A program made the translations under genes and the position numbers. A stretch of 64,000 bases of DNA from an uncultured Bacteroides sp. (GTDB taxonomy: Bacteria; Bacteroidota; Bacteroidia; Bacteroidales; Bacteroidaceae), in the NCBI GenBank assembly GCA_947173895.1, contig CAMWGU010000002.1, positions 17,426 through 81,425 on the forward strand. Direction: 5' to 3'. The notes under the pieces were generated by a model, which had not been told where the DNA came from, did no database searches, and saw only the letters and a program-made list of their open reading frames with translations. Below are positions 7,098 through 63,016 of this stretch, in pieces. Numbering within the stretch: the first letter of the stretch is position 1; the number at the start of each line of letters is the position of its first letter.

Positions 7098-7156
7098 TTT
7101 GTTCCTTTGCCTGATTACCCCTTCACACAGGCCACACTATTGATGTGATTCTACTT

Positions 7157-7402
7157 TTCCCTTCCTCCTTTCATTATCCGCTGAAACGCCCTGTGGATGG
7201 GGATTCCGAGAGTGAAAGGACACTCCGTAGGCTCCCTTCATCCTCCTTTCATTGGCACATGAAAGCAGCATAGCGAAAATCGCTGAAGGCAGATGTGAAG
7301 GGACGTGGGCAACATGGCTGAAAGGAGGATGAAGGGAGGTACTGTCATTTTTAACCGGCTGATTGATAGTCACTTCAGGTGAAAATGAAAGGATGAAGGG
7401 AG
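7157..7402 (+). mobile_element. MITE-like non-coding element, copy A
   Basis: Ends CCCTTCCTCCTTTCATTA / AATGAAAGGATGAAGGGAG are near-inverted repeats; internal 20-nt perfect inverted repeat 7232-7251 / 7319-7338; homologous in reverse orientation to 24055-24310. Confidence 0.65.
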
Positions 7403-7440
7403 ACGGGGAAAAAGCAACCTGATGAGGGGGAGATGTCCTC

Positions 7441-7540
7441 TGTATGTATGTGTGAGGCTGCACGTACGTACGTGTGAGGCTATACATACGTATGTGTAGG
7501 CCTACACGTACGTATGTACAAGCCCACACATACGTATGTG
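7441..7540. repeat. Tandem palindrome array, TACGTA core, 22-nt pitch, array A
   Basis: TACGTA cores at 7465, 7487, 7509, 7531 (exact 22-nt spacing) plus degenerate TATGTA at 7443. Confidence 0.9.
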
Positions 7541-7590
7541 TTTTACGACAAGACGGAATGTGTTGCGGTGCACATGCAGGTCTGTGCTGT

Positions 7591-7678
7591 GAACAAGCCA
7601 AGCTCGTGCAACGAACAAGCTAAGCTTGTACGGCGAACAAGCCTTCATGTTCCGGTGAACAGGCCTTCATGTTTCGTG
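7591..7678. repeat. Second tandem array: four 22-nt GAACAAGCC/T... units with imperfect palindromes
   Basis: Units start at 7591, 7613, 7635, 7657; unit 2 contains perfect ACAAGCT-A-AGCTTGT. Confidence 0.85.
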
Positions 7679-7791
7679 ATTTCCTTGCATCCAATGACCT
7701 TTTGTGCCAAATATTCGATTCCTACTTCTCTTGACAAATGCTTTTTGATATTTGCAGAACGTTACCCCATTAAACCATAGCACTACCATTA

Positions 7792-7929: not shown

Positions 7930-8244
7930 AAGAAATTATCAACAACCGGAAATGTCCGCTGGTCCGTATTCACCTTTCCTATTGGTTAATAAGTGCAAAA
8001 AAGGAGAGAACTGACTACCTATACATGAAACTGACCTGTCTTAATGATACATATAGGGATTATTCCCGGACAATATTGTGTGTCGAATGAAGGTTTGGAA
8101 AGGCAGGACGAAAGTTTCGTTTGAAGATATACAGGTTGTTTGGATGGAGAGAAGAAACACACATTTGATTTATGATAGGAGTTATATTAAGGAGTTTACG
8201 GATAGAAGCTGGTTTATCTGCCATTCAGGTGGCAGATAGGCTAC

Positions 8245-21344: not shown

Positions 21345-21992
21345 AATATGATAGTTTTATATTAAAATAGATTAGTTCATGAATAATGTGTGTATTAATT
21401 AAATTCTTTAATTCTATTTAGAATAGTAATCTAAATAAGCTTTTGTTAAATAGACAGTTATTTCTATAAAAAGGGTAGTCTATATTTTTATTTTTTAAGT
21501 TCATTAACATTTGGAGTGGGATAGTGACTACTCCATCTATGAAGAGCATGGAGACACTTATTGTAAACAAGTCGGATAGGTCTCGCAATTGGTCTCGATG
21601 AAAAGATGGCAGCTTTGGTCGAATCAATCAAATAGGCTTTTCACAGATTTGATATAGACATTCGGTTTCTTTTTTTGAAGTAGTACTAGGCGAAGAAACG
21701 GTTCGGTGTATAGAGATATTCCTTTTGGGGAATAAGGTATCAAGCTATATTTACTTGATTCTCTTGAAAAGATAGATTAAAAAGTTGACTATTCCTTTCC
21801 AAATCAGGATGCAGTAAAGTATTCTCAATTAATATATTTATCTTGAATATCCTTGTTTGAGTTTTCATTGTACGATTAGAAATAATGTTCCTGCTTCAGC
21901 TTCGTCAATAATACAAGATTCTAATCGCCCGAGTTTTAGATAACTCCAGCCTTGTTTTTTGTGCTGCCGGTGTAGAATCCGTGGATTTTATC

Positions 21993-22000
21993 TAAATTTG
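21993..22000 (+). promoter_or_regulatory. Bacteroides-type -7 element (TAAATTTG)
   Basis: Matches TAnnTTTG, 34 nt before ATG 22034. Confidence 0.5.
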
Positions 22001-22033
22001 CACCTGAATAAACAAATAATAACACCTATCGCA

Positions 22034-23857
22034 ATGAAAAAGAGAATCGCTTATGTTGGCATGTACTTCTTTACGCTCCTGCTGATATTTATGATACAGA
22101 AACCGTTGTTCATGCTCTATAATGGTTCCATCGAAAAAGGAATAGGGTTTACCGATTATTTGCAGGTGATGGCTCACGGAGCCAGCCTGGATGCCACTAT
22201 GGCGGGATACCTCACGGTGCTTCCCTTTCTGGTGATGCTGGCCAGTATCTGGTTTAAGCGGTTCCCTTTGAAGAAGATATTGTGGGGCTATTTGGTGTTG
22301 GTGGCCGTGCTGGTCTCTTTGGTCTTTGTGGTGGATATGGGGTTGTATCCCTTTTGGGGATTCAAGCTGGATGCTTCTGTCTTTCTTTATATTGATTCGC
22401 CTAAAGAGGCGTTGGCCAGTGTCTCCATGGGGTTCATCCTGTTGAGGCTCTTGGTTATCTTGTTGCTTGCCGCCTTGAACAGTTGGGTGCTGCTGAGGAT
22501 AACGCCTGCGGTGCTGGAGGCTACCCGTAAACGGGTGGCCGGAACTGTCGGCATGCTGCTGTTGGGTGGTGTGCTTTTTGTCATCATCCGGGGTGGGGTG
22601 ACCGAATCTACTTCCAATATCGGACAAGTGTATTTCAGCAACGACCCTTTTCTGAACCATTCGGCTGTCAATCCTGATTTCAGTTTGTTGTCTTCCATGG
22701 GGAAATCGCAGGATTTCGCATCGGAATTCAACTTCTTTGACGAGGAGAAGCGGGCCGCTTTGTTCGATGGTCTTTATCCTACGGCGGATGGTGACAGCGT
22801 GGTGCAGGTATTGAACACCCAGCGTCCCAATGTGCTGATTGTGCTGATGGAAGGGTTCGGAGGTGCTTTTGTGGAGCCTTTGGGCGGACTGCCCGATGTG
22901 ACTCCCCACTTCAACCGGCTGACAGAGGAGGGTGTGTTCTTTACGAATTGCTATGCCAACAGTTTCCGTACAGACCGTGGGACGGTTTGTACGCTCAGCG
23001 GTTACCTGGGGTTGCCTACGGCATCGGTGATGAAGATTCCTGTCAAGAGCCGCACGCTTCCTTCCATTGCGGAAGAGCTGGTTAGGGTCGGTTATCGGAC
23101 GGATTTCCTATACGGGGGTGATATCAACTTTACCAATATGAAGAGCTATCTGCTGAGCAAGGGCTACCAGCACCTGACTGCCGACACGGATTTCTCGTTG
23201 GCCGAGCAGACCGGCAACGCTTGGGGGGTGAATGATGACATTACGTTTGAGTATCTTTACCGCCGGTTGAAGGACAGGACGGAGTCGCCATGGCATACGG
23301 CATTCCTGACGCTGAGCAGCCACGAACCCTTTGAGGTGCCTTACCATCGGCTGGACGAGCCGATTCCCAATGCCTTTGCGTTCACAGACGACTGTCTGGG
23401 GAAATTTATAGAGAAACTGAAGCAGACTCCAGTGTGGGAGAACCTGTTGGTGGTGTGCCTGCCCGACCATGGTTTCTATTATCCGCGCGAGGGGCTCCAA
23501 ACGGCTCCCAAGTTCTACCATATCCCGATGCTGTGGCTGGGCGGAGCGGTGAAGCAGCCGATGAAGATAGATAAGCTCATGAACCAGGCCGACCTTGCCG
23601 CCACGTTGCTGGGGCAGCTGGGACTGGACCATTCTTCGTTTGCTTTCAGCCGCAATGTGCTGGGCAGCGGTTACACCTATCCTTTTGCCTTTTATAGTTT
23701 CAATAACGGGTTTTCTTTCCGCGACAGTACCGGTGTGACGGTGTTCGACAATCCTTCGGAAAGCATTCTGCTGGACGAACCCTCCGGCTGTGCGGACCGC
23801 GTCGACAAAGGAAAAGCCATCTTGCAAAGCGTATATGACGACTTGGGCGGGCGATAG
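22034..23857 (+). CDS. LTA synthase family / sulfatase-superfamily membrane protein
   Basis: N-terminal TM segments, NVLIVLMEGFGGAFVEPLGG, NSFRTDRGTVCTLSGY, SSHEPFEVP, PDHGFYY; start reassigned to MKKRIAYVG. Confidence 0.9.
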   Translation: MKKRIAYVGMYFFTLLLIFMIQKPLFMLYNGSIEKGIGFTDYLQVMAHGASLDATMAGYLTVLPFLVMLASIWFKRFPLKKILWGYLVLVAVLVSLVFVVDMGLYPFWGFKLDASVFLYIDSPKEALASVSMGFILLRLLVILLLAALNSWVLLRITPAVLEATRKRVAGTVGMLLLGGVLFVIIRGGVTESTSNIGQVYFSNDPFLNHSAVNPDFSLLSSMGKSQDFASEFNFFDEEKRAALFDGLYPTADGDSVVQVLNTQRPNVLIVLMEGFGGAFVEPLGGLPDVTPHFNRLTEEGVFFTNCYANSFRTDRGTVCTLSGYLGLPTASVMKIPVKSRTLPSIAEELVRVGYRTDFLYGGDINFTNMKSYLLSKGYQHLTADTDFSLAEQTGNAWGVNDDITFEYLYRRLKDRTESPWHTAFLTLSSHEPFEVPYHRLDEPIPNAFAFTDDCLGKFIEKLKQTPVWENLLVVCLPDHGFYYPREGLQTAPKFYHIPMLWLGGAVKQPMKIDKLMNQADLAATLLGQLGLDHSSFAFSRNVLGSGYTYPFAFYSFNNGFSFRDSTGVTVFDNPSESILLDEPSGCADRVDKGKAILQSVYDDLGGR

Positions 23858-23910: not shown

Positions 23911-24010
23911 GTACATACGTACGTGTAGGCTTATGCATACGTATGTGTAGCCCGATGCATACGTATGTGTAGGCTTATGCATACGTACGTGTAACCCGAT
24001 GCTTATGCAA
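23911..24010. repeat. Tandem palindrome array, TACGTA core, 22-nt pitch, array B
   Basis: TACGTA cores at 23916, 23938, 23960, 23982 (exact 22-nt spacing), with a degraded fifth unit. Confidence 0.9.
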
Positions 24011-24054
24011 GAGCGGATAGTATCACCCCTTCATCAGGTTGCTTCTTCCCCTTC

Positions 24055-24310
24055 CCCCTTCATCCTTTCATTTTAGGTAAAACCATCTATCAATCAATCG
24101 GTTGAAGATGATAGGGCATCCCCTCACGACCCTTTCAGCCACCGGCATGAGTCCTTTCACATCTGCCTTCGGCGGTTTCACACCATACAGCCTTTGTGTG
24201 CCGATGAAGGGAGGCTGAAAGGAGGATGAAGGGAGCCGACGGAGTGTCCTCTTACCCTCGGAAGCCCCATCGGCAGGGCGTTTCGGCGGATAATGAAAGG
24301 ATGAAGGGAG
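24055..24310 (-). mobile_element. MITE-like non-coding element, copy B (inverted relative to copy A)
   Basis: Reverse complement aligns with 7157-7402 (TTCATTATCCGC-GAAACGCCCTG, GGACACTCCGT-GGCTCCCTTCATCCTCCTTTCA, GCAGATGTGAA); terminal inverted repeats CCCTTCATCCTTTCATT / AATGAAAGGATGAAGGG. Confidence 0.65.
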
Positions 24311-24443
24311 AGACTGAATTATTAAAAGAACAGTTTCTAAAACTATGTCGGCACAACAATTATTAACAAATTGGCATGCAGTCTTTCTCCAATTGCTCCA
24401 CTATATATAGAACACAACCTATTTTATCAACGAACTAAAACTA

Positions 24444-50855: not shown

Positions 50856-50940
50856 TACACGTACGTATGTGTAGCCCCACACATACGTATGTATACCCCC
50901 TATACATACGTACGTGTAGGCTCACACGTACGTACGTGTT
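50856..50940. repeat. Tandem palindrome array, TACGTA core, 22-23-nt pitch, array C
   Basis: TACGTA cores at 50862, 50884, 50907, 50929. Confidence 0.9.
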
Positions 50941-62248: not shown

Positions 62249-62389
62249 GTAGCATCGGATATTCCTGTCTCGACATCTTTTAGAGAAACGAGTCTGAGTG
62301 CCTCCTCAGTCGTAACAATACTTCATCCTTTGCGGATGCAAACTTCTTTGCTCCTGTACAAATACTTGTTGCCGGCCGCTCTAATTCTT

Positions 62390-62471
62390 AAAACACCGTC
62401 GGTGTTCTATAAGACACCGCCGGTGTTTTATAAAACTTCGACGGAAATCATTAGAACACCGACGGTGTTTT
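62390..62471. repeat. Tandem palindrome array, ACACCG-N-CGGTGT core, 21-nt pitch
   Basis: Dyad centres at 62399, 62420, ~62441 (degenerate), 62462. Confidence 0.88.
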
Positions 62472-63016
62472 AAGAAATCAATAGGGCATAAACAACTTTT
62501 AGAAGAGCCTTTAAGAATTTTGTAAACTGACAGAATCCGTTATATGTTCATTGTTATACGACGCATCGTTCATTGCCCGTCCGGAATTGCACATAATGCG
62601 GAAAAGATATATATAATAAGGTATAGGTCGTTCGGCCGGTTTTTCATTCTGCCAACGATTTATTCTATATGGACATACAATCCCGCCCATATGAAGAGCC
62701 CTATTGTCTTTAAAGCCTGAATGGGAAAAACAAGTCTGCCGTTTCTACTTATTTTCTATTGATTATTACCCGTTTCCCATAGGCAGACAGGTGGGTACAA
62801 GCACTTGATGCAGTATAAAGTGTTACTTTCATTCTACCCATTTGAAAATGATTCTCACCAATTGAGCTTCAATTTTTTACCCAATAATTATAAATACAAA
62901 CCCGAATATTGGAGCCTGTTTTAACAATAAAGTCCCATCATTCCTTTCATTGAAAGAAAAAGAAGCAAAAGTGAAATATTTTTTTTGTTCTGCTTTCTTG
63001 GATATTAAAATTATTC

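What the first reader, a model, noticed from the sequence alone, without database searches (positions are those of the whole stretch)
23911..24010. Array B: second TACGTA array immediately downstream of the LTA-synthase-like gene
Cores at 23916, 23938, 23960, 23982 with exact 22-nt pitch. The linkers differ from array A (alternating GCTTATG / CCCGATG) while the cores and pitch are conserved, which suggests selection on the dyads and spacing, or recent expansion by unit duplication.
Basis: seen in the sequence. Interest (0 to 1): 0.7.

Follow-up and report, generated by a model that had tools for sequence, protein, structure and literature searches.

The report
Four-palindrome module of a genome-wide repeat
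The four evenly spaced palindromes after this gene are one of about sixty similar arrays scattered between genes of a gut bacterium (Phocaeicola); most sit inside small non-coding mobile elements, and arrays with other sequences but the same 22-letter step occur across related gut bacteria, for reasons not yet known.

Summary
In detail: four TACGTA cores at 23916, 23938, 23960 and 23982, pitch exactly 22, linkers alternating. But array B is no local curiosity. The genome (a Phocaeicola) holds about 60 such arrays, mostly of exactly four units and intergenic wherever checked. Array B is fused, on the minus strand, to a truncated copy (24024-24309) of a block with about 40 copies; every copy with a readable flank is followed by an array. 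Complete copies are MITE-like elements whose ends match a resident ISL3-family insertion sequence; array B's copy has lost those ends. Among copies collected by the block, cores vary far less than linkers or block. The site is empty in the relatives read. Four units are the family norm, so a hypervariable repeat is not supported, although the 44-bp alternation hints at an internal duplication. More widely, 20-23-bp tandem palindromes of unrelated sequence recur in Bacteroidaceae intergenic DNA, favouring convergent gene ends. They fold strongly but show no U-run enrichment, and the TACGTA arrays no compensatory changes, so function is open. The closest parallel is the BrickBuilt MITE of Porphyromonas gingivalis.

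The parts
23914..24002 (.). Array B: four 22-bp units, each a near-palindrome centred on TACGTA plus a 6-bp linker
24024..24309 (-). Truncated copy of the dispersed 294-bp block (M block) that precedes array B on the minus strand; 93% identical to the query consensus
   Evidence: (G000:C2:41449-41734; window = contig minus 17425)
24053..24072 (+). Inner inverted-repeat arm of the M block, TCCCCCTTCATCCTTTCATT
   Evidence: I4
24292..24311 (-). Partner arm of the same 20-nt inverted repeat (95% complementary)
   Evidence: I4
21959..23857 (+). Neighbouring LTA-synthase-like gene (context, not part of the element)
   Evidence: orthologues
7154..7429 (+). M block of the related element that carries array A
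   Evidence: G000:C2:24579-24854
7442..7541 (.). Array A, same family, main linker subtype
7584..7673 (+). Second 22-bp-period array (AACAAGCC type) that follows array A inside the element
7943..7965 (-). Right terminal inverted repeat of the array-A element (GGACCAGCGGACATTTCCGGTTG), the only terminal repeat of this family found in the window
50857..50939 (.). Array C: stand-alone array without M block (pitch 22, 23, 22)

Best explanation
Array B is the four-palindrome module of a truncated, now probably immobile, copy of a dispersed non-autonomous (MITE-like) element. Shown: a shared block precedes the array in about 40 places; complete copies end in inverted repeats matching those of a resident ISL3-family insertion sequence and share about 70 bp of its right end; array B's copy keeps block and array but has no terminal repeat; the site is empty in the relatives read. 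Inferred: an ISL3-type transposase moved the elements in trans (the one transposase gene found in this assembly has an in-frame stop, so the activity is or was supplied by another copy), and copies persist mainly where they do not break promoters. Inferred with less confidence: the dyads are kept because the array, as a long hairpin in RNA or as a row of dyads in DNA, has an effect at gene 3' ends or in the element's own spread.
For: About 60 arrays per genome, mostly exactly four units at pitch 22. About 40 M blocks, an array following in every copy with readable flank; array B is among them, in a subtype with CCCGATG-like linkers. Terminal repeat GGGTCAGCGGATATTTCCGGTTG at 38 places; a pair encloses a 1324-bp element coding a PF01610 (DDE_Tnp_ISL3) transposase, E 3e-27 and 4e-19 for its two pieces; right ends of IS and MITE align 59 of 73. 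Empty orthologous sites: array B, array C. Core conservation. 52 of 52 arrays intergenic; convergent 16, divergent 5, against 59:79 for ordinary gaps, p 0.005. RNA hairpin -52.9 kcal/mol, z -5.8.
Against: No target-site duplication could be shown. About a quarter of the arrays (13 of 52) stand alone with mostly unique flanks and no M block, so the array is not tied to this one element. The only ISL3 transposase gene in the assembly is interrupted. Pairing does not exceed what independent columns give. No excess of T-runs on the exit side (9 against 8). The convergent-gene bias may reflect only tolerance of insertion there.
Confidence: 0.8

Rival explanations
1. Bidirectional transcription terminator or mRNA 3'-end stabiliser: the array is kept because its transcript folds into a long hairpin between neighbouring genes, as REP/BIME elements do in enterobacteria. 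(It can be true together with the mobile-element origin.)
For: Strong predicted hairpins (25 of 30 related arrays with z below -2); excess at convergent gene pairs; some stand-alone copies are bounded by an A-run and a T-run (L026).
Against: No excess of T-runs on the exit side; no covariation, and A-C mismatches about as common as G-U; array B has no T-run and the orthologous site lacks the array in relatives.
Confidence: 0.3
2. Row of binding sites for a DNA-binding protein: dyads every 11 bp (TACGTA and the linker dyad alternate) put the sites on roughly one face of the helix.
For: Nearly invariant cores with freer linkers; changes in the dyads almost all transitions, 57 to 3 against 144 to 68 in the block, so the purine-pyrimidine pattern is kept; pitch kept while core letters change between species.
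Against: No candidate protein found; sequences differ between arrays and species more than a single protein's site usually does; few arrays lie between divergent promoters (5 of 36 with both neighbours called).
Confidence: 0.2
3. A hypervariable tandem repeat (VNTR) recently expanded at this locus.
For: 44-bp period in array B; a few arrays of five or six units exist.
Against: Most copies, including other subtypes, have four units; the array came with an element.
Confidence: 0.05
4. REP sequence mobilised by a RAYT (Y1) transposase.
For: Short dispersed extragenic palindromes.
Against: No Y1_Tnp gene in the genome, although the assembly is about 95% complete; mobile copies carry ISL3-type ends.
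Confidence: 0.02

Closest known systems
BrickBuilt MITE of Porphyromonas gingivalis (PMC4596501)
   Same: Non-autonomous element of the same bacterial order with a tandem short-unit repeat (23 nt) between a leader and a tail, intergenic, 19 copies, predicted long stem-loops; terminal repeats match a resident IS.
   Different: BrickBuilt unit number runs from 1 to about 23 and its ends are of the IS5 family; here four units are the rule, each unit is itself near-palindromic, pitch is 22, ends are ISL3-type, and arrays number about 60. Sequence relation was not tested.
REP/BIME repetitive extragenic palindromes with RAYT (PMC3733652)
   Same: Short palindromes in intergenic DNA, many copies.
   Different: 20-40 bp tagged units, thought to be mobilised by Y1 transposases; here no Y1 gene and tandem packs of four.
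ISL3-family insertion sequence and its MITE derivatives
   Same: Terminal repeats and right end shared with the resident ISL3-type element.
   Different: The interior (M block and two 22-bp-period arrays) is not derived from the transposase gene as far as seen; no 8-bp target duplication shown.

Membership tests
MITE of an ISL3-family IS | Terminal inverted repeats like those of an autonomous IS in the genome | tested here: met
   TIR at 38 places and at both ends of the 1324-bp IS; right ends align 59/73. Met for the family; the truncated array-B copy itself has no terminal repeat.
MITE of an ISL3-family IS | Transposase of that family in the genome | tested here: met
   PF01610 hit at G000:C11:51201-52034, with one in-frame stop
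MITE of an ISL3-family IS | Short, non-coding, many dispersed copies | tested here: met
   About 40 M blocks; arrays intergenic in 52 of 52
MITE of an ISL3-family IS | Target-site duplication at both ends | tested here: inconclusive
   Copies are split over contig ends; the one IS with both ends shows no matching 8-mer
BrickBuilt | Variable number of 23-nt direct repeats between leader and tail with IS5-type ends | tested here: not met
   22-nt units, mostly four, ISL3-type ends (PMC4596501)
REP with RAYT | Y1 transposase gene in the genome, associated with the palindromes | tested here: not met
   No PF01797 match in the assembly, 95% complete
Intrinsic terminator | Hairpin followed by a U-run on the exit side | tested here: not met
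   Hairpin yes, U-run no: T-runs of 4 or more in 9 and A-runs in 8 of 40 tests on related arrays; array B is followed by TTATGCAAGAGC
VNTR | Unit number varies between strains at one locus | not testable with these tools
   No second strain of this species was available; across loci the number is nearly constant

The most novel reading that the evidence does not exclude
The arrays belong to a Bacteroidales-wide class, undescribed in the literature I could search: three to six tandem near-palindromes at a pitch of 21-23 bp, unrelated in sequence from array to array, placed between genes and favouring convergent gene ends. The pitch, not the sequence, is what is kept, which would point to a shared structural ruler (a helical-phase binding protein, an RNA-processing step, or the mechanism that creates the arrays).
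Probability: 0.35. Interest if true: 0.7.

Novelty: new variant of a known kind. Interest (0 to 1): 0.45.

Why it matters
It replaces a puzzling local repeat by a concrete mobile-element family that shapes intergenic DNA and breaks assemblies in a common gut genus (many contigs end in it). If the wider 22-bp class holds up, gut Bacteroidales carry a frequent intergenic structure with a fixed step and no known role, whose effect on transcript ends or protein binding can be tested directly.

Tried and rejected
RAYT/REP: no Y1 transposase. Known RNA families: no Rfam hit in the window. RNA helix by covariation: none found in stand-alone, CCCGATG or main-subtype arrays. U-run terminator: no excess. 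Phage origin: no match in phages. A strict exact-pattern scan of named genomes found nothing, so organism names came from the neighbouring gene. The first conservation table had the core labels one base off; it is superseded. Literature: no description of these arrays in the open-access library; subscription papers were not searchable.

Full report
The observation. Array B is as described: TACGTA at 23916, 23938, 23960 and 23982, pitch 22. The linkers alternate, so the best-scoring repeat period is 44 at 93% match; units 1 and 3 differ at one site, units 2 and 4 at two. The consensus unit of the family, TACGTATGTGTAGGCCTACACA, is palindromic about two centres 11 bp apart (my reading). TACGTA is three times over-represented in the window.

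It is one of a genome-wide family. The window lies in a 3.26-Mb Phocaeicola assembly of 143 contigs; the neighbouring LTA-synthase-like protein is 82-84% identical to those of P. massiliensis, P. faecalis, P. sartorii and P. vulgatus. A four-core pattern at pitch 22 matches 59 times per strand, its reversed control once. Of 52 arrays of at least two exact cores that I fetched, most have exactly four units, a few two, three, five or six. None overlaps a predicted gene (gene calls are from a simple codon-usage script).

It is a module of a mobile element. A block of about 294 bp lies on one side of most arrays; a search of the genome gave 40 copies covering half or more of it, and wherever the flank could be read an array follows. 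On the other side there is often a second 22-bp-period array of a different palindrome, AACAAGCC..GGCTTGT. The outer ends of complete copies are an inverted repeat, GGGTCAGCGGATATTTCCGGTTG, seen at 38 places, many at contig ends. Two of these enclose a 1324-bp element at G000:C11:50767-52090 that codes a transposase of Pfam DDE_Tnp_ISL3, interrupted by one stop. The terminal 70 bp of IS and MITE at the right end align 59 of 73. I therefore take the composite for a MITE-like element served by an ISL3-type transposase. Target duplications could not be shown.

Array B in particular. On the minus strand the M block runs from 24309 to 24024, and array B follows from 24002 to 23914. It belongs to a subtype with CCCGATG-like linkers that also includes L036, L043, L049, L055 and L062. 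The window holds only one terminal repeat of this family, at 7943-7965, belonging to the array-A element. Array B's copy is therefore truncated and probably immobile. No array lies behind the orthologous gene in the eleven closest loci I printed. Array C, a stand-alone array, is likewise absent behind the orthologous gene in the nine relatives that have it, including those with 90% identical protein and the same next gene.

Are the dyads constrained? To avoid choosing copies by the very letters under test, I used copies collected through the M block or terminal repeat. In these, 3 of 24 core columns vary (mean pairwise difference 0.013), against 8 of 18 linker columns (0.095) and 37 of 65 block columns (0.134); core against linker p 0.03, core against block p 0.0002. 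With all copies of the main subtype the means are 0.010, 0.125 and 0.150. The copies share ancestry, so these probabilities are indicative. Core plus arms taken together are not distinguishable from the linkers by rank test (p 0.35 and 0.16), so the constraint is mainly on the six-base core. Changes in the dyads are almost all transitions (57 to 3; block 144 to 68).

What it may do. Array B folds as RNA with -52.9 kcal/mol, z -5.8, which any tandem palindrome would tend to do; as DNA -21.4, z -3.1. Pairing frequencies do not exceed what independent columns give, neither for local dyads nor for a fold-back of the whole array, and G-U and A-C mismatches are about equally common. T-runs are not enriched where transcription would leave the array. 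Arrays prefer convergent to divergent gene pairs, 16 to 5, against 59 to 79 for ordinary gaps of 120 bp or more (p 0.005). That fits a role at transcript ends and equally fits selection against insertion in promoters. I cannot decide between a transcript-end role, a row of protein sites, and a property that serves only the element.

A wider class. Relatives carry arrays with the same pitch and other cores or arms (GCGTATATACG, AATCATACGTATGATT); one Phocaeicola genome carries a 67%-identical M block beside such an array. In 1.2 Mb of stretches from four Bacteroidaceae genomes, tandem arrays of period 20-23 number 30, of which 20 have period 22, against 21 for periods 14-19 and 9 for 24-45; 200 kb of E. 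coli gave none where five would be expected at the same density, and 400 kb of shuffled sequence gave none. Two of the four genomes (G019, G236) were chosen because they had arrays, and some G236 stretches lie near known ones, so the density is somewhat inflated; P. vulgatus (G060) alone has only three in 400 kb. Over half of these units have a dyad of at least 6 of 7 pairs, against 10% after shuffling. Of 35 arrays including the window's, 34 are non-coding, with 13 convergent and 3 divergent (p 0.006). The sequences are unrelated from array to array by eye. I found no description of such a class in the open literature library, but 22- and 23-nt tandem repeats are on record for P. gingivalis W83 (cited in PMC4596501).

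Comparison. The nearest known thing is BrickBuilt, a MITE of P. gingivalis built round 23-nt tandem repeats. It differs in end sequence (IS5 family), in variable unit number and in copy number. It is an analogue, not a relative by any test made here.

Verdict. This is a new variant of a known kind. The interesting part is the recurrent 22-bp step across the bacterial family, which needs a proper census and an experiment.

Noticed in passing
window 62385-62436: A further tandem array, period 21, 2.5 copies of a palindromic unit (AAAACACCGCCGGTGTTTT), inside 71-nt inverted arms at 62339-62522.
   Followed up: partly
window 7728-7770: The array-A element carries, before its right end, TTGACAAATGCTTTTTGATATTTGCAG, which resembles the Bacteroidales promoter (TTG ... 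TAnnTTTG) and points outwards; other copies have TTGACAAACGCTTTTTGATGTTGTATATTTGCAG, sometimes followed by a gene start.
   Followed up: no
G000 contigs C5, C20, C28, C59, C60, C77 and others, first few hundred bases: Many contigs of this assembly end in the element or its terminal repeat, so the repeats break the assembly.
   Followed up: partly
L160, L164, L175, L176: Some copies are followed by the start, or broken pieces, of one shared gene (MNVFSTLKTVFFG...), as if the element had picked up, or sits before, a small gene family.
   Followed up: partly
PLSDB OY726012.1 and 23 other Phocaeicola records: Records filed as plasmids of Phocaeicola (those listed are P. massiliensis) contain parts of the M block and array; they may be chromosome fragments filed as plasmids (inference; all are typed non-mobilizable).
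   Followed up: no
L061, L208: Older-looking copies in which some units have a GATAGTA core in place of TACGTA.
   Followed up: no
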